A model generated the notes under the pieces. It was not told the DNA's origin. It worked only from the letters and a program-made list of their open reading frames with translations, and did not search any database. Positions 392 to 60,223 of a stretch of DNA of 63,527 nt are shown here, piece by piece. The stretch lies in the IMG/VR virus record IMGVR_UViG_3300042691_048475, positions 1 through 63,527 of that record, one strand, 5' to 3'. Position 1 is the first letter of the stretch. Every line of letters starts with the position of its first letter. Position numbers and translations under genes: made by a program. Source of the DNA: a virus.

Positions 392-1348
392 CTATTCTCC
401 AAATAAATCGTCTAATTCGAAAAGTACTTGTTCACTTGGTTTTCTAGGTGTCCAATTTACACATTGATAAAAACGTTCAACAGCTGCATATACAATTTTT
501 TCAAATAATAATTCTCTGTCCGGTTGAAATATAGATTTGAATTCTTCAGGAAAAATATACTTAAAACCTATGCTTTCAATACCATACTTATTAGGTGTTT
601 GTACATAAAAATATTTAATTTTGTCACCAGAAACAATTTTTTCATATTTGCCTTCTAAGTTCATTTTTTCTAAAAGAATATTATGAAAATAAGCTGCTTT
701 TACATGATTGGGCATGCCTTTACTAACACGAAAATCATGACACATATTTGCATATTTTTCATATCCTCTAATACCACTTGTTCTAGACACATCTTCCAAT
801 GGTAATGCTTGAAATACATCATACGCTTCTTTCAAGACTTCATTTGTTTTAGCACAGGATTTGGTTGTTAACATTGTTTCAATAATTTTTTTAACATATG
901 GTTTAACATTTTTTGGCATTGATGTTCTAACTACGTCTACACCAGTATATTTCCATTTATCACATTGAATGCCTTCATCATCTAAAACATGCAATACATA
1001 TCGTTTCTTTTCTAAAAAAAGACCAACATCAGCCATTGATTCTCTTTTAAAGGCTAATCTACAATCTTTTGAATTCAATGTATTTTTAGCCCATACCTGT
1101 ATTTGTTCATTTAAATATTTTTCTAATTTTTCAGCATGTTCGTAACCTTCTTTTGTAACTTTACCATTCTTGCTAAATTCAATTGGCAATAACTTAAGAG
1201 ATAAATAACAGGAATTATGAATTAAAATGTCATTTGCAAAGAATGTGTGTTCTGTATCAGACTCCATTTCAATGTCATAAACATATTCGTCTTCAAAGGA
1301 GCCAACGCACGTTACCTCATCTATATTTGATATATTAAATTGTTTCAT
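392..1348 (-). CDS. 43: DNA polymerase gp43, C-terminal fragment (C-intein + C-extein)
   Basis: 318 aa. Residues 1-45 are a C-terminal split-intein half: block F (YVYDIEME...HTFFANDILIHN) ends in the penultimate His and terminal Asn needed for cyclisation. It is followed directly by Ser46 as the +1 nucleophile, SCYLSLKLLP. The remaining 273 residues continue family B polymerase after the YGDTDS motif: the rest of the palm and the thumb, including a KKRYVLHV segment equivalent to the KKRYALNV region of T4 gp43. Joined to the N-terminal fragment by protein splicing, the active site would read YGDTD-SCYLSL. Its first 14 nt overlap the end of the small endonuclease ORF upstream, in another frame, suggesting coupled translation. 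What is seen is the intein motif set and the gene break; trans-splicing is inferred from known split inteins. Confidence 0.93.
   Translation of the reverse strand: MKQFNISNIDEVTCVGSFEDEYVYDIEMESDTEHTFFANDILIHNSCYLSLKLLPIEFSKNGKVTKEGYEHAEKLEKYLNEQIQVWAKNTLNSKDCRLAFKRESMADVGLFLEKKRYVLHVLDDEGIQCDKWKYTGVDVVRTSMPKNVKPYVKKIIETMLTTKSCAKTNEVLKEAYDVFQALPLEDVSRTSGIRGYEKYANMCHDFRVSKGMPNHVKAAYFHNILLEKMNLEGKYEKIVSGDKIKYFYVQTPNKYGIESIGFKYIFPEEFKSIFQPDRELLFEKIVYAAVERFYQCVNWTPRKPSEQVLFELDDLFGE
1214..1348 (-). other. C-terminal half of a split intein in DNA polymerase (C-intein, 45 aa)
   Basis: Codes for 45 residues ending ANDILIHN, followed by the +1 Ser codon at 1213-1211. It has blocks F and G of the Hint fold, with the conserved FFAND and HN. 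The length matches natural C-inteins of split inteins (about 35-45 aa). It has its own ATG start, so it is translated as a separate polypeptide rather than as an internal intein. Confidence 0.92.
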
Positions 1349-1601
1349 TTAAAAATTGTAAGCATTTTTTTATAATTGCATCTCTATCTTTTAGAAGATC
1401 ATTTTCCCAAATCATTAAAACTTTACAACCATGAATATTCTCTAAAAGAGAATTGTGTTCTAACGTTTTTTCATATAATTCTTTAGCTGTTAGTTTTGTC
1501 TGATTGTTTATAAAATCAGGTGTATATACCTCAGGCTTACCGTGCCAGTAATCTCCTAAAAATTCGATAATTTTTTTCTTCGAAATGTCATAGAAATCCA
1601 C
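1335..1601 (-). CDS. Free-standing Vsr/EDxHD-type homing endonuclease between split-intein halves
   Basis: 88 aa from a GTG start. The segment VDFYDISKKKIIEFLGDYWHGKP resembles the Vsr-like (EDxHD, I-Bth0305I-related) endonuclease core, and the later KVLMIWENDLL matches the family's final strand. The frame is open upstream of the GTG to a TGA that abuts the N-intein stop. The predicted EAKNHEYFFTHLGYKTIF just upstream also looks like the family's N-terminal strand, so the real start may be a non-standard codon nearer 1690. It sits exactly between the N-intein and C-intein genes and overlaps the latter by 14 nt. This is the layout described for 'fractured genes' in metagenomes (Dassa and colleagues, 2009). 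Cleavage activity and target are inferred. Confidence 0.8.
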   Translation of the reverse strand: MDFYDISKKKIIEFLGDYWHGKPEVYTPDFINNQTKLTAKELYEKTLEHNSLLENIHGCKVLMIWENDLLKDRDAIIKKCLQFLNETI

Positions 1602-1687
1602 AAAAATAGTTTTATATCCCAGGTGTGTAAAAAAGTATTCGTGATTCTTTGCTTCAAAGAAAATATTATTATGTATCTGCGTAAGTG

Positions 1688-2226
1688 TTAATCAATTGTT
1701 ATGATTTTATCAGACTCAATATCAATTTCACAGGGTTTAACACGGACAAGATTGCCATTACGCACAACCATACACCCGTGATCTTCTGTCATATACAGAA
1801 CTTTGTTGTTTACTACAATTTTATATTTTTTCTTACTGACCTTATGTCTAATGAGATTTTTAATCTTTCCCCATTTTACGGTATTTGTTTTACTACAAAA
1901 TGTAAATGTTTTTAAATTTTTATCCGATACATCAATAATTTCGTGGCCGTGTGTAGTTACTTGTTTTTGTGTCGTTTTGTAGTTATCATAAAGTACACCT
2001 ATTTCGCACGTTCCTAAATTTGTTTGTACCATTGTATTTGCAACCACACTATCTGTATCACCATATATTGCAACGGTTTCTAAGGTTTTTTCATCTGTAA
2101 TATTGCTGTGTTTTGATATGTAATTCTTTGCAATATCACGTGCTTGTTTAATTACAGCTTGACCAGTTAAGGTGATCGACGATGCGATATCATCATCACC
2201 AATTGGTGCATGCTTATTACCGAAAT
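1688..2226 (-). CDS. 43: DNA polymerase gp43B exon 2 + N-intein
   Basis: Second exon after a group I intron. The spliced reading begins (..Y)FGNKHAPIGDDDIASSITL, the conserved region after polymerase motif B, and runs to AIYGDTD, the catalytic motif C (the two Asp residues bind metal). At 2050 it passes into an N-intein that begins with Ser. The frame is open upstream to 2287, but those extra residues (about 20, low-complexity) lie inside the intron and do not fit the polymerase family. The ORF ends right after the N-intein (..DKIITID, stop). Exon 1, the 58 residues here and the junction codon give a 95-aa extein piece carrying both motif B and motif C. The protein alone would be inactive. 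Confidence 0.9.
1691..2050 (-). other. N-terminal half of a split intein in DNA polymerase (N-intein, 120 aa)
   Basis: Starts at the Ser codon (2050-2048) directly after YGDTD, the known pol-c insertion site of polymerase inteins. Block A is SVVANTMVQTN and block B is the MTEDHGCMV segment (consensus TxxH-like, here T-E-D-H). The total of 120 aa is usual for an N-intein lacking an endonuclease domain. A stop codon follows at 1690-1688. The first residue Ser, rather than Cys, means an O-N acyl shift in the first step. Confidence 0.9.
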
Positions 2227-2485
2227 CATTATCTTCCAAATAAATCGTTATTTTATTTGCGCTCGAATGAGCTGCTATATTTTTCAATATAGATGAGACT
2301 ATATCATCATCCGTTAAGGATGTCTCCCGTTTCGATACACTTGTATCTACTCACAATTTGTGATAGTCGTTGAACGTTCTTCTTGCGAAGCTTCGCTGCT
2401 GATTGCCATGATGCTTTCATTTTAGGTTCCCAGCAATTAAAGAGATTTGCAATATTAATTACTTAATATTGGGACTTTGGTGTTA
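2227..2485 (-). ncRNA. Group I intron (IA-like), 259 nt, in DNA polymerase gene
   Basis: Lies between the codons for motif B (INSAYG) and FGNKHAP. Core elements on the minus strand include P (AATTGCTGGGA), Q (AATCAGCAGC), R (GTTCAACGACTA, 2375-2364) and S (GATATAGTC, 2305-2297). R and S pair through GACTA/TAGTC to form P7. Between R and S are hairpins TCACAAATTGTGA, GATACAAGTGTATC and CATCCTTAACGGATG, matching P7.1, P7.2 and P8 of subgroup IA. P9 is CTATATT-GAAA-AATATAG. The 5' site follows U at 2486. P1 is GGAU in the exon against GUCC in the intron with the required U-G wobble. The last intron base is G (2227). The splice gives GGA TAT TTC GGT (G-Y-F-G) in frame. No ORF is carried inside. 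Confidence 0.92.
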
Positions 2486-2594
2486 ATCCGTATGCTGAAT
2501 TGATAAAAATTTTTATACTCATTTGTTTGGCATTAAGCCTTAAAATTGTATCCTCTAGTTCACGTTTTCGCTGCATTAATTGCTGAATATCCAT
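2486..2594 (-). CDS. 43: DNA polymerase gp43B exon 1 (motif B)
   Basis: 36 codons plus one base, starting at ATG 2594: MDIQQLMQRKRELEDT..., then KQMSIKIFINSAYG. This is family B motif B (K-x-x-x-N-S-x-Y-G), the fingers helix that contacts the incoming dNTP. Unspliced, the frame ends eight codons later (LTPKSQY, stop), so the exon only makes sense when joined to exon 2 at 2226. An in-frame TAA lies eight codons before the ATG, which fixes the start. Its charged helical beginning continues where gp43A stops, so the polymerase is split at the tip of the fingers, as known for gp43A/gp43B of some Aeromonas T4-like phages. Confidence 0.88.
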
Positions 2595-2821
2595 ATATAA
2601 TGTTAATGACTGTTATAGGGTTTTTATCTATAGAATAGATTATAAGGGTGATAATGATGTTATCAAGAACTGTAGTTATGCAGGTTCAAGAAAAAAAGAT
2701 TTATTAATATGGGGATATGCGAGAGATAGTATAATGCACAGAATAAAAAATAATTCTAGTAAACCATTATTTTTAAGAACCAAAAAAAAATTAGATTAGA
2801 GTAGATGGATTTATTAAAAAA
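2595..2821. other. Spacer between gp43A and gp43B, possible relic ORF on the plus strand
   Basis: 227 nt separating the two polymerase pieces. I see no group I core motifs here on the minus strand, and the minus frames are full of stops. The plus strand is open for about 70 codons from 2587 to the TAG near 2800 without an ATG at its head. It reads ...CYRVFIYRIDYKG... then CSYAGSRKKDLLIWGYARDS, which looks protein-like but matches no family I know. It could be the remains of a mobile endonuclease whose insertion split the gene. That is a guess. Confidence 0.4.
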
Positions 2822-4327
2822 TCACTCGCCTCGCTGTAGTCGTTGAATTTCTTTTTCTAATGCTGCGTATTCTTTTTTATATTTTTTAAGTTCTGCTTGA
2901 ACTGCCTTTCTTTTTTGATAATAAAAATCAACCATCTCAGGTACTATACCTTTATTCTTTTGTGAAAATAAAACTTTTGCTTTACTAATAGCAATATCTT
3001 CTTTCTTTAAAAAATGTGCAAAATTAGGTTTTGTCAATTTAAATGTTTGCCCGTTTACGTGATGTACAGTGACATCGTCATCGGTCATATCAACTATTTT
3101 TCCTACCTTTGTTTCTGGCGACATGTTTAATGAAATCATTAGATTTGGATATAGTGAATTAGCATCGAATGATACAATATCTTCCTGAAACCCATTCAAT
3201 GGCTCTGCGACGTATGCACCGGGATTTCTGGATCCATCGTCTTCTTTTCTAATAAAAGTAGATATACGTTGACCTCTCTTGCGCGCACGAATACATGCAG
3301 CACCGGTAATAATACCCAATGTTCCGAGTGCGCCTTCAAATGTAGTACAACCAATATAAGAAATCATTCGAATTAAAGATAAAAATTGCAATTTCTCTTC
3401 TAACTTTACAAGAATATTCACGTCTTGAATATTATAATCGATGAATTTATCCCAATCTTCTACCATTACATCATATAAGTCCTTTTCTAAAACTACCTTT
3501 TTTTCACCTAACTCCAATTCACCAATACTATCTAATTTATAGCTTTCTCTGTTTGCAAAAGAAAAACGTTTATAAACATCCAAGTAATCAACACATGATA
3601 TACCATCAATATGATAGCTAGCTTGTGTTTTACCGAATGTTCCAATAAAGGTGCGTACATATGTTCTCTTTACTGGTGATATCTCATGCATTCCCGCTTC
3701 ACCAAATACATTTTTTAATCGGTTAATGATGTATGGTATATCAAAACCAGCACTATTCCATCCTGACAAAACATCAGGTGGATCATTCTTAAAAAATTCA
3801 ATTACACCCGACAATAAATCTTCTTCAGATTTACAATAATAATAAACTACATCATTTCTTTTAGCTTTGTATGGTTTTAATCCCCATGCATAAAATTTCT
3901 TACTGAAAGAATCATATATAGTAAGAACATTAATAGGTACATCAGCCAATGCAGGATCAGGAAAACGATCTTTACACACTGCTTCGATATCTACGAAATA
4001 TGTTTTAATAGGAAATTTTGAGAAATCTTCTGTCTCATTATGTTCCCAAAATATATCTAATAATGCTTGTTGTACAGAACCAAAATGCTCATATACACGA
4101 CGAATACCCGTCTCTGTTAAATATTTTTGTCTTTCGTATGCGTTGTTAAAAGATTTTTTAGCTAGAGGTGTATTATAGATCGATATCTCATGACCTCGTT
4201 TATCTTCATAATAATAATATGGATAATACTTTGTTGTATATGAAATACGATCTCCATCGTCAGACCATGTGTATATTTCCACAGTCTGATCTTTAGGATT
4301 ATAACAAGCGTTGCGATACCCAATCAT
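2822..4327 (-). CDS. 43: DNA polymerase gp43A (exonuclease domain and palm motif A)
   Basis: 501 aa, the N-terminal part of a T4-type family B replicative polymerase. The 3'-5' exonuclease motifs are complete: Exo I DIE (113-115), Exo II N191...F195 D196 and Exo III YNIQD (298-302). Palm motif A is FDANSLYP (387-394). The protein ends in a charged helix (KKYKKEYAALEKEIQRLQRGE) at the fingers, before motif B, and a true TGA follows. Motif B and motif C lie in the separate downstream pieces. The spliced exteins sum to 501+95+273 = 869 aa against 898 for T4 gp43, so little or nothing is missing. Functional assembly of A and B as a two-subunit enzyme is inferred from other split gp43 phages. Confidence 0.95.
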   Translation of the reverse strand: MIGYRNACYNPKDQTVEIYTWSDDGDRISYTTKYYPYYYYEDKRGHEISIYNTPLAKKSFNNAYERQKYLTETGIRRVYEHFGSVQQALLDIFWEHNETEDFSKFPIKTYFVDIEAVCKDRFPDPALADVPINVLTIYDSFSKKFYAWGLKPYKAKRNDVVYYYCKSEEDLLSGVIEFFKNDPPDVLSGWNSAGFDIPYIINRLKNVFGEAGMHEISPVKRTYVRTFIGTFGKTQASYHIDGISCVDYLDVYKRFSFANRESYKLDSIGELELGEKKVVLEKDLYDVMVEDWDKFIDYNIQDVNILVKLEEKLQFLSLIRMISYIGCTTFEGALGTLGIITGAACIRARKRGQRISTFIRKEDDGSRNPGAYVAEPLNGFQEDIVSFDANSLYPNLMISLNMSPETKVGKIVDMTDDDVTVHHVNGQTFKLTKPNFAHFLKKEDIAISKAKVLFSQKNKGIVPEMVDFYYQKRKAVQAELKKYKKEYAALEKEIQRLQRGE

Positions 4328-10805: not shown

Positions 10806-10997
10806 ATGGCAATATCCTTTGAAGAATATTTTAAAATGGATGAGATGACCACTGCTAGTGTCCTAGGACTAGGATCTGATACGGGTATGGGTGGTGCAGT
10901 CGGTAATAAAGATTTCTATGCACCTGGTACTGCAGTAATACCAAAAGGTGGTAAAAAGAAAAAAATACAAAGGCGTAATTTAAAAAATAAGCTATGA
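10806..10997 (+). CDS. Small conserved phage protein, 63 aa
   Basis: It starts MAISFEEYFKMDEM, then has a glycine-rich centre (VLGLGSDTGMGGAVG) and a strongly basic tail (GGKKKKIQRRNLKNK). No known domain is recognised. Its stop overlaps the ATG of the GIY-YIG gene by 4 nt. Transcribed divergently from uvsY with about 27 nt between the starts. The ORF is compact and coupled, so it is likely real. Confidence 0.65.
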   Translation: MAISFEEYFKMDEMTTASVLGLGSDTGMGGAVGNKDFYAPGTAVIPKGGKKKKIQRRNLKNKL

Positions 10998-11413
10998 TTG
11001 ATTATGGTCATTGGACTTGCAATATTCCTTTTGTGTCTGCATATGGTTTTGTTTATGTGATTGAAAATTTAATCAATAATAAAAAATATATTGGTAAAAA
11101 ACAAATGCAAACGATCAAAAAACTTAAGCCTTTAAAGGGTAAAAAAAATAAAAGGCATTTTGTAATCGAAACGGATTGGAGGAATTATATGTCGTCATCC
11201 AATGAGTTATTGTATGATATAGAAAAAAACGGAAAAAATAATTTTAAATTTGAAATCTTAAGATTTTGCCAAAGTAAAAGTGAATTGGCTTATTTCGAAG
11301 CTAAAGAGCAATTTGACAGAGAAGTATTGCTCCGTGATGACTATTATAATGGCATAATTAACTTGAGAATAGGAAAAATAAAAAATATTTCAAAAATACC
11401 GGTTGCAAATTAA
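10994..11413 (+). CDS. GIY-YIG endonuclease domain protein (SegE-like)
   Basis: 139 aa. GFVYVIENLINNKKYIGKKQ (about residues 18-38) is a GIY-YIG core with the tyrosine and the Y-I-G-K. A DWRNYMSSS block and the helix ELAYFEAKEQFDREVL carry the family's conserved Asp/Tyr and Glu positions. This resembles the phage 'SegE-like GIY-YIG' proteins. Some are homing endonucleases; others are conserved phage genes of unknown role. No DNA-binding C-terminal domain is seen. It overlaps the preceding small gene. Confidence 0.8.
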   Translation: MIDYGHWTCNIPFVSAYGFVYVIENLINNKKYIGKKQMQTIKKLKPLKGKKNKRHFVIETDWRNYMSSSNELLYDIEKNGKNNFKFEILRFCQSKSELAYFEAKEQFDREVLLRDDYYNGIINLRIGKIKNISKIPVAN

Positions 11414-59521: not shown

Positions 59522-60190
59522 ATGATATTTAAATGCGAGCAATGCAATAAAACATTTCGAAATAATATGTCATTGAATGGTCATAAAGCATGGCATGTTA
59601 AGCGTTCAGGTAAAGACATTGCGTCTGCAATTCAACGAAACAAACAAAGATTGGAAAGGAATAAACAATTATACTACGCTGATCCACGCCGGTGCAATCA
59701 ATGTCATGAGATTATTTGTTATGAAAAAGCAATACAAAAGCGCAGCGAAAATATTTATTGTAATAGTTCATGCGCAGCCTCTTATAACAATGTACATAAG
59801 AAATATGGTACTAGGATATCAAAATTAGAAACGTGGCTAGCCTCAAAATTGAATACAATGTTTCCGCAATTAGAAATACATTATAATAGAAAGGATGTCA
59901 TAATGTCCGAGCTAGATATTTTCATTCCTGCTTTACAGCTAGCATTTGAATTAAACGGTGTGCATCATTATAAACCAATCCATGGATGCATTAAATTAAA
60001 TAGGATTCAACGGAATGATAACCTTAAGGTTTTGGCATGTATTAAACATAATATCCAATTGCATGTCATTGATACATCTCAACATAATTATGTTAAAGAA
60101 TCAACATGCATTCCTTACCTCCACCGGATTGCAGAGGTCATTAAAAAGAAACTCCTGGAGTTGGGCTTGAACCAACAACCGTTCGGTTAA
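59522..60190 (+). CDS. Homing endonuclease, Vsr/EDxHD-type with N-terminal zinc finger
   Basis: 222 aa. Residues 4-24 form a C2H2 zinc finger (CEQCNKTFRNNMSLNGHKAWH); CNQCHEIICY and NIYCNSSC form a second Cys cluster near 60-90. The nuclease core is SKLETWLASKLN, SELDIFIPALQLAFELNGVHH and QLHVIDTSQHN (Glu, Asp and His of the EDxHD order). The last 39 nt are antisense to a tRNA-Asn gene, so the C-terminal ELGLNQQPFG is dictated by the tRNA. Probably a mobile gene lodged beside a tRNA. Start ATG 59522; ACGTATG precedes. Confidence 0.85.
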   Translation: MIFKCEQCNKTFRNNMSLNGHKAWHVKRSGKDIASAIQRNKQRLERNKQLYYADPRRCNQCHEIICYEKAIQKRSENIYCNSSCAASYNNVHKKYGTRISKLETWLASKLNTMFPQLEIHYNRKDVIMSELDIFIPALQLAFELNGVHHYKPIHGCIKLNRIQRNDNLKVLACIKHNIQLHVIDTSQHNYVKESTCIPYLHRIAEVIKKKLLELGLNQQPFG

Positions 60191-60223
60191 CAGCCGAATG
60201 CTCTACCATTGAGCTATCCAGGA
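60152..60223 (-). tRNA. tRNA-Asn (GTT)
   Basis: 72 nt on the minus strand. Acceptor TCCTGGA/TCCAGGA with G discriminator, D-arm GCTCAATGGTAGAGC, anticodon arm TTCGGCTGTTAACCGAA with anticodon GTT, T-arm TTGTTGGTTCAAGCCCAACT. No CCA is encoded. The 3' portion of the plus-strand endonuclease CDS (to 60190) overlaps it antisense. Confidence 0.95.

What the first reader, a model, noticed from the sequence alone, without database searches (positions are those of the whole stretch)
392..4327. DNA polymerase broken three ways: fingers split, group I intron and fractured split intein
One gene is interrupted by a protein split (gp43A | gp43B), a 259-nt group I intron after motif B, and a split intein at YGDTD|S with a free-standing endonuclease ORF between its halves. 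The pieces reassemble to about 869 aa against 898 for T4 gp43, with all exonuclease and polymerase motifs present once. So activity would need RNA splicing, protein trans-splicing and subunit assembly together. Each kind of interruption is known singly (gp43A/B in Aeromonas phages, polymerase introns in SPO1-like phages, fractured genes in metagenomes). I know of no case with all three in one gene.
Basis: partly seen in the sequence, partly recalled or inferred. Interest (0 to 1): 0.95.

Follow-up and report, generated by a model that had tools for sequence, protein, structure and literature searches.

The report
Phage DNA polymerase with three interruptions
An uncultured T4-like phage encodes its DNA polymerase in three pieces (a split subunit, a self-splicing intron and a split intein); the same layout is already on record for cultured Aeromonas phages, but close relatives here show in detail how such breaks arrive, spread and lose their mobility genes.

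Summary
On the minus strand, a T4-type family B polymerase (gp43) is encoded as gp43A (4327-2822), gp43B1 (2594-1688) with a 259-nt group I intron (2485-2227) and an intein N-half, and gp43B2 (1348-392) beginning with the intein C-half. Reassembled it is 869 aa, like uninterrupted relatives.

The novelty claim fails. GenBank already annotates all three interruptions together in cultured Aeromonas phages (Aes508, JN377894; also Aes517, Aes512, Aes144). The window is a new, distant member of that kind, and a second environmental phage (L113) has all three too.

Corrections and additions:
- The "endonuclease ORF" is a dead remnant: 720 nt, including the start codon, are missing relative to L002.
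- The fingers gap holds the scar of an antisense homing-endonuclease-like gene, intact at the same place in L060.
- The intein block is 98-99% identical to L002, while the flanking polymerase exons differ strongly at silent sites (dS 0.04 against 1.3-2.0), so it arrived recently by homing.
- The intron occurs only in polymerases with the fingers split, which suggests that split and intron travel together.

Splicing, trans-splicing and subunit assembly are inferred, supported by experimentally studied relatives.

The parts
2822..4327 (-). gp43A: exonuclease domain, palm motif A and first fingers helix (501 aa)
   Evidence: dN/dS 0.03 against L002 and L006
2595..2821 (+). Fingers split gap: antisense scar of a homing-endonuclease-like ORF. 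Matches at 2623-2694 (residues 11-34, 67%) and 2713-2847 (residues 293-336, 53%) of the intact 337-aa ORF in L060; about 250 aa deleted between
   Evidence: phrog_3339 'homing endonuclease' E 4e-5 for the intact ORF
2486..2594 (-). gp43B1 exon 1: second fingers helix and motif B (KIFINSAYG), ending at U2486
2227..2485 (-). Group I intron, 259 nt, no ORF
   Evidence: (RF00028, 103.8 bits); same site in L003-5, L011-12, L113; 18 of 67 predicted pairs with compensatory changes
2051..2226 (-). gp43B1 exon 2: palm up to YGDTD (motif C)
1688..2050 (-). Intein N-half (Ser1; TEDH block B), 120 aa, then stop
   Evidence: 9hth E 1.6e-6; 98.9% nt identical to L002
1335..1673 (-). Remnant of a Vsr-like homing endonuclease (residues 230-341 of the L002 protein); start codon and N-terminal two thirds deleted
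1214..1348 (-). Intein C-half (45 aa, ends HN)
   Evidence: TIGR01443 above cutoff; identical in protein to L002
392..1213 (-). gp43B2 C-terminal extein (Ser+1, thumb; 273 aa) and stop

Best explanation
This is a T4-type family B DNA polymerase gene colonised by three kinds of mobile insertion at three conserved sites. Inferred working: (1) the group I intron removes itself from the gp43B1 mRNA and joins Y-G to Y-F-G; (2) the intein halves on gp43B1 and gp43B2 associate and splice in trans to make one gp43B chain; (3) gp43A and gp43B assemble without a covalent link at the fingers. Origin: the fingers split is the scar of an antisense homing-endonuclease-like gene. The intein and its Vsr-like endonuclease arrived recently as one block from an L002-like phage. 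Both endonuclease genes have since been deleted, while the elements needed to keep the polymerase functional remain. It is a new, distant instance of the arrangement already annotated in Aeromonas phages such as Aes508.
For: Anatomy. Same arrangement annotated in Aes508, Aes517, Aes512, Aes144; introns confirmed. Exons under strong purifying selection (dN/dS 0.016-0.04). Intein, endonuclease and intein block dS 0.03-0.04 against 1.3-2.0 in flanking exons. The endonuclease remnant has 6 non-silent and 2 silent changes, the N-intein 1 and 3 (small numbers). Empty sites in L006-L010. Intact antisense ORF between gp43A and gp43B in L060. Intein model of relatives matches the Aes123 PolB1 intein 9hth first, TM 0.86. 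Gp43A and gp43B expressed together co-purify with polymerase activity (PMC2988022). Intron base-pair covariation.
Against: No RNA or protein data exist for this phage. The scar reading of the gap rests on one intact homologue; it matches at both ends with the middle missing. The window-specific deletions could be assembly errors, since no reads are available. The Aeromonas introns sit one codon (3 nt) downstream, so the introns need not be directly related.
Confidence: 0.87

Rival explanations
1. The polymerase is a decaying, non-functional gene: successive insertions have broken it and the pieces are no longer joined.
For: Both endonuclease ORFs are truncated; the gp43B1 start lies just after a deletion scar.
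Against: Exon dN/dS 0.016-0.04; all splice-site features are intact; the intron joint restores the relatives' sequence exactly; no second family B polymerase matched the relatives' gp43 fragments in the window, though the window is only a fragment.
Confidence: 0.06
2. The breaks are sequencing or assembly artefacts.
For: The 720-nt endonuclease deletion and the 226-nt spacer sequence occur only in this contig.
Against: The fingers split, intron and intein each recur in several other contigs, and all three together in L113 and in cultured Aeromonas phages. The deletion joins at a short shared ATAAT, as real deletions often do.
Confidence: 0.04
3. The halves on either side of the intein work without protein splicing, as a three-subunit enzyme.
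For: Split polymerase subunits without inteins are active in Aeromonas phages (PMC2988022).
Against: Catalytic Ser1, TxxH, HN and Ser+1 are all conserved, and the intein halves are less changed than the endonuclease remnant. The break lies within the catalytic YGDTDS motif, where intein tails would block the active site (inference).
Confidence: 0.03

Closest known systems
Aeromonas phage Aes508 gp43 (GenBank JN377894); same plan in Aes517, Aes512, Aes144
   Same: gp43A and gp43B split in the fingers, group I intron after motif B, split intein at the DTD|S motif with a Vsr-like gene between the halves.
   Different: About 26% identity in the C-terminal extein (compared with Aes123). A sense-strand Seg GIY-YIG gene, not an antisense one, in the gap of Aes508 and Aes512. 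Intron site one codon downstream. Vsr-like gene full length (353 aa).
Aeromonas phage 25 gene 43 (Intron 25.g43B)
   Same: 43A/43B split with an intercistronic endonuclease gene, and a group I intron without its own endonuclease in 43B (PMC2993671).
   Different: No intein; the seg gene is intact (phrog_314).
Aes123 PolB1 split intein (PDB 9hth)
   Same: Same insertion site, Ser nucleophiles, closest solved structure (TM 0.86).
   Different: 27% identity (to the L003 relative that was modelled); Aes123 is cysteine-less (PMC11923092), while the window's N-half contains cysteines.
'Fractured genes': split inteins with a free-standing endonuclease gene between the halves (Dassa et al. 2009, cited in PMC6892783; paper not held)
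   Same: Split intein with an endonuclease gene between the halves, as also in Pseudomonas phage MIJ3 polB (PMC6892783).
   Different: Here the endonuclease gene is truncated, and the gene is broken at two further sites.

Membership tests
Group I intron | Conserved catalytic core and secondary structure | tested here: met
   RF00028, 103.8 bits, full model 1-253; covariation in 18 of 67 predicted pairs over six sequences
Group I intron | U-G pair at the 5' splice site, terminal G, exons rejoin in frame | tested here: met
   U2486 pairs G in P1; intron ends at G2227; product Y-G-Y-F-G as in L006
Group I intron | Self-splicing activity | not testable with these tools
   needs RNA work
Split intein (Hint fold) | Sequence and fold of splicing domains | tested here: met
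   IntN to 9hth E 1.6e-6; IntC above TIGR01443 cutoff; contiguous relatives model as Hint fold, top hit 9hth
Split intein (Hint fold) | Ser/Cys/Thr at 1 and +1, TxxH in block B, C-terminal HN | tested here: met
   Ser1, TEDH, HN, Ser+1
Split intein (Hint fold) | Halves on separate ORFs, ligated in trans | tested here: inconclusive
   separate ORFs shown; ligation not testable here
Fractured gene with free-standing endonuclease | Intact endonuclease gene between the intein halves | tested here: not met
   only the C-terminal 112 of 341 aa remain and there is no start codon; intact in L002
gp43A/gp43B split polymerase of T4-related phages | Break between motifs A and B in the fingers; both parts conserved | tested here: met
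gp43A/gp43B split polymerase of T4-related phages | Subunits assemble into an active enzyme | not testable with these tools
   reported for an Aeromonas phage enzyme (PMC2988022)
GIY-YIG homing endonuclease (gap ORF) | GIY-YIG domain | tested here: inconclusive
   no Pfam match; phrog_3339 'homing endonuclease' E 4e-5; structure model unusable, pLDDT 40

The most novel reading that the evidence does not exclude
The fingers split and the intron are one co-travelling module. A previously undescribed antisense homing-endonuclease-like gene (intact in L060) inserts in the fingers and drives transfer of the neighbouring ORF-less intron in trans, so independent endonuclease families in unrelated phages have converged on the same polymerase sites.
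Probability: 0.3. Interest if true: 0.55.

Novelty: new member of a known kind. Interest (0 to 1): 0.42.

Why it matters
The triple layout is not new, but this clade shows the life cycle of such insertions in near-contemporary alleles: empty site, intein with intact endonuclease, intein with deleted endonuclease, and endonuclease-free contiguous intein. It gives a clear signature of recent intein homing (dS 0.04 inside against 1.3-2.0 outside). It also suggests that a split polymerase persists after the gene that split it has gone. The halves are candidate natural split inteins for protein ligation.

Tried and rejected
1. Artefact: rejected because the features recur in independent contigs and in cultured phages.
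2. An unprecedented combination: rejected after the Aeromonas records.
3. Gap ORF as a remnant of the Aeromonas seg gene: rejected; no significant similarity between L060's ORF and Seg, opposite orientation, different PHROG. A 14-aa match to seg25 is taken as chance.
4. Structure of the L060 ORF: single-sequence model with pLDDT 40, not used.
5. Further copies of the gap ORF: none in phage records (one marginal hit) and only L060's own contig in IMG/VR.
6. A clear direction of intein splitting: the tree puts contiguous and split states together and forces at least two changes, but most deep branches are unsupported, so direction is not claimed.
7. Some key papers (Petrov 2010, Dassa 2009) are not held; their content is taken from citing papers.

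Full report
WHAT IS THERE. The window is an IMG/VR virus record of 63,527 bases, linear. At its left end, on the minus strand, lies a T4-type family B DNA polymerase in pieces: gp43A 4327-2822; a gap; gp43B1 2594-1688 with an intron at 2485-2227 and an intein N-half at 2050-1691; a short endonuclease-like ORF at 1673-1335; and gp43B2 1348-392, which starts with the intein C-half. Joined, the exteins give 869 aa.

THE INTRON. Rfam RF00028 matches the full model with 103.8 bits. The aligned P1 helix pairs exon GGAU with GUCC, with the U-G pair at U2486. With the 3' end at G2227 the intron is 259 nt, and the joint reads Y-G-Y-F-G. The uninterrupted relatives L006 and L002 read the same. The same intron sits at the same site in L003-5, L011-12 and L113. 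Over six sequences, 18 of 67 predicted pairs show compensatory change (the structure was predicted from the same alignment). Splicing itself is inferred.

THE INTEIN. The site is YGDTD|S in motif C. The N-half alone finds the solved Aes123 PolB1 intein (9hth, E 1.6e-6) and the C-half passes the curated intein C-terminal model. Ser1, TEDH, HN and Ser+1 are present. Contiguous relatives of this intein model with pLDDT 92, and their best PDB match is again 9hth. Trans-splicing here is inferred from those relatives.

THE ENDONUCLEASE BETWEEN THE INTEIN HALVES IS DEAD. In L002 the same place carries a 341-aa Vsr-like protein, a relative of the Aes123 VSR protein (33% over 275 aa). The window keeps only its last 112 residues. 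A 720-nt in-frame deletion, joined at a short shared ATAAT, removed the start codon. L113 and L013 keep even smaller scraps.

THE INTEIN ARRIVED RECENTLY. Against L002 the N-half is 98.9% and the endonuclease remnant 97.6% identical in DNA, with dS 0.03-0.04. The flanking polymerase exons have dS 1.3-2.0. This is the pattern expected of homing between diverged phages, followed by loss of the endonuclease here. The remnant has 6 non-silent and 2 silent changes and the N-half 1 and 3; these numbers are small.

THE FINGERS SPLIT IS A SCAR. The plus strand of the 226-nt gap encodes two blocks that match the N- and C-terminal parts of a 337-aa ORF in L060 (67% over 24 residues and 53% over 49). In L060 that ORF is intact and lies antisense between gp43A and gp43B at the same place. 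It matches a homing-endonuclease PHROG (E 4e-5) but no Pfam domain. In L003-5 and L011-12 gp43 is also split, with only a few nucleotides between or overlapping the cistrons.

SPLIT AND INTRON GO TOGETHER. Among the gp43 loci classified, the intron occurs in seven contigs (window, L003, L004, L005, L011, L012, L113), all split at the fingers. L060 and L067 are split without an intron; no unsplit polymerase in the set has the intron. These contigs are related, so this is not an independent-sample test. The window's fingers segment between split and intron is closer to L003 (77.5%) than to L006 (58%), whereas the exon after the intron is closer to L006 (86% against 76%). This fits transfer of split plus intron as a block.

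WHAT IS KNOWN. Aes508 (JN377894) annotates exactly this plan: gp43A, a Seg-like GIY-YIG gene, gp43B-1 with group I intron and N-intein, a VSR-domain protein, and gp43B-2 with the C-intein. Aes517, Aes512 and Aes144 agree, and Rfam confirms the introns. AS-gz has the same ORF pattern and a Rfam intron hit. Aes123 has split plus split intein, with no intron annotated or found by Rfam. Phage 25 has split, seg gene and intron; its intron lacks its own endonuclease and is predicted to use a free-standing one (PMC2993671). Split gp43A and gp43B co-purify with polymerase activity (PMC2988022). Aes123 PolB1 is a characterised split intein from Aeromonas T4-like phages (PMC11923092).

HOW THIS ONE DIFFERS. 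It lies in a distant phage lineage (26% identity in the C-terminal extein). The gap gene is of another family and on the other strand. The intron site is one codon upstream of the Aeromonas site. Both endonuclease genes are truncated. So the sites are hot spots that have been hit more than once, at least for the fingers gap.

VERDICT. A real, well-supported feature; a new member of a known kind. The claim of a first case is refuted.

Noticed in passing
L113:3898-7771: A second environmental phage (62% identity in the C-terminal extein) with all three interruptions; its Vsr-like gene is reduced to a 47-aa scrap.
   Followed up: partly
L003:5611-6102, L018:5626-6123, L020:5629-6126: Contiguous, endonuclease-free mini-inteins at the same site in relatives of split-intein phages; contiguous and split forms interchange at least twice on the tree.
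   Followed up: partly
L060:925-1938: Intact 337-aa antisense ORF between gp43A and gp43B; possible new type of homing endonuclease, only one copy found.
   Followed up: partly
L067:2-5606: The gp43A ORF of 930 aa appears to hold a large intein in the exonuclease motif (ILSGWN|C...), and the gp43A/B gap holds a PP-loop (TilS-like) gene and an unknown gene instead of an endonuclease.
   Followed up: no
L023:2134-10676: Three Vsr-like matches and two intein C-halves within 9 kb, so probably more than one fractured gene.
   Followed up: no
window 59522-60190: 222-aa ORF with an N-terminal C2H2-type zinc finger (weak Pfam match), overlapping a tRNA gene on the other strand (60152-60223); may be another free-standing homing endonuclease.
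   Followed up: partly
window 10994-11413: SegE-like GIY-YIG endonuclease (PF19835, E 2.5e-30).
   Followed up: no
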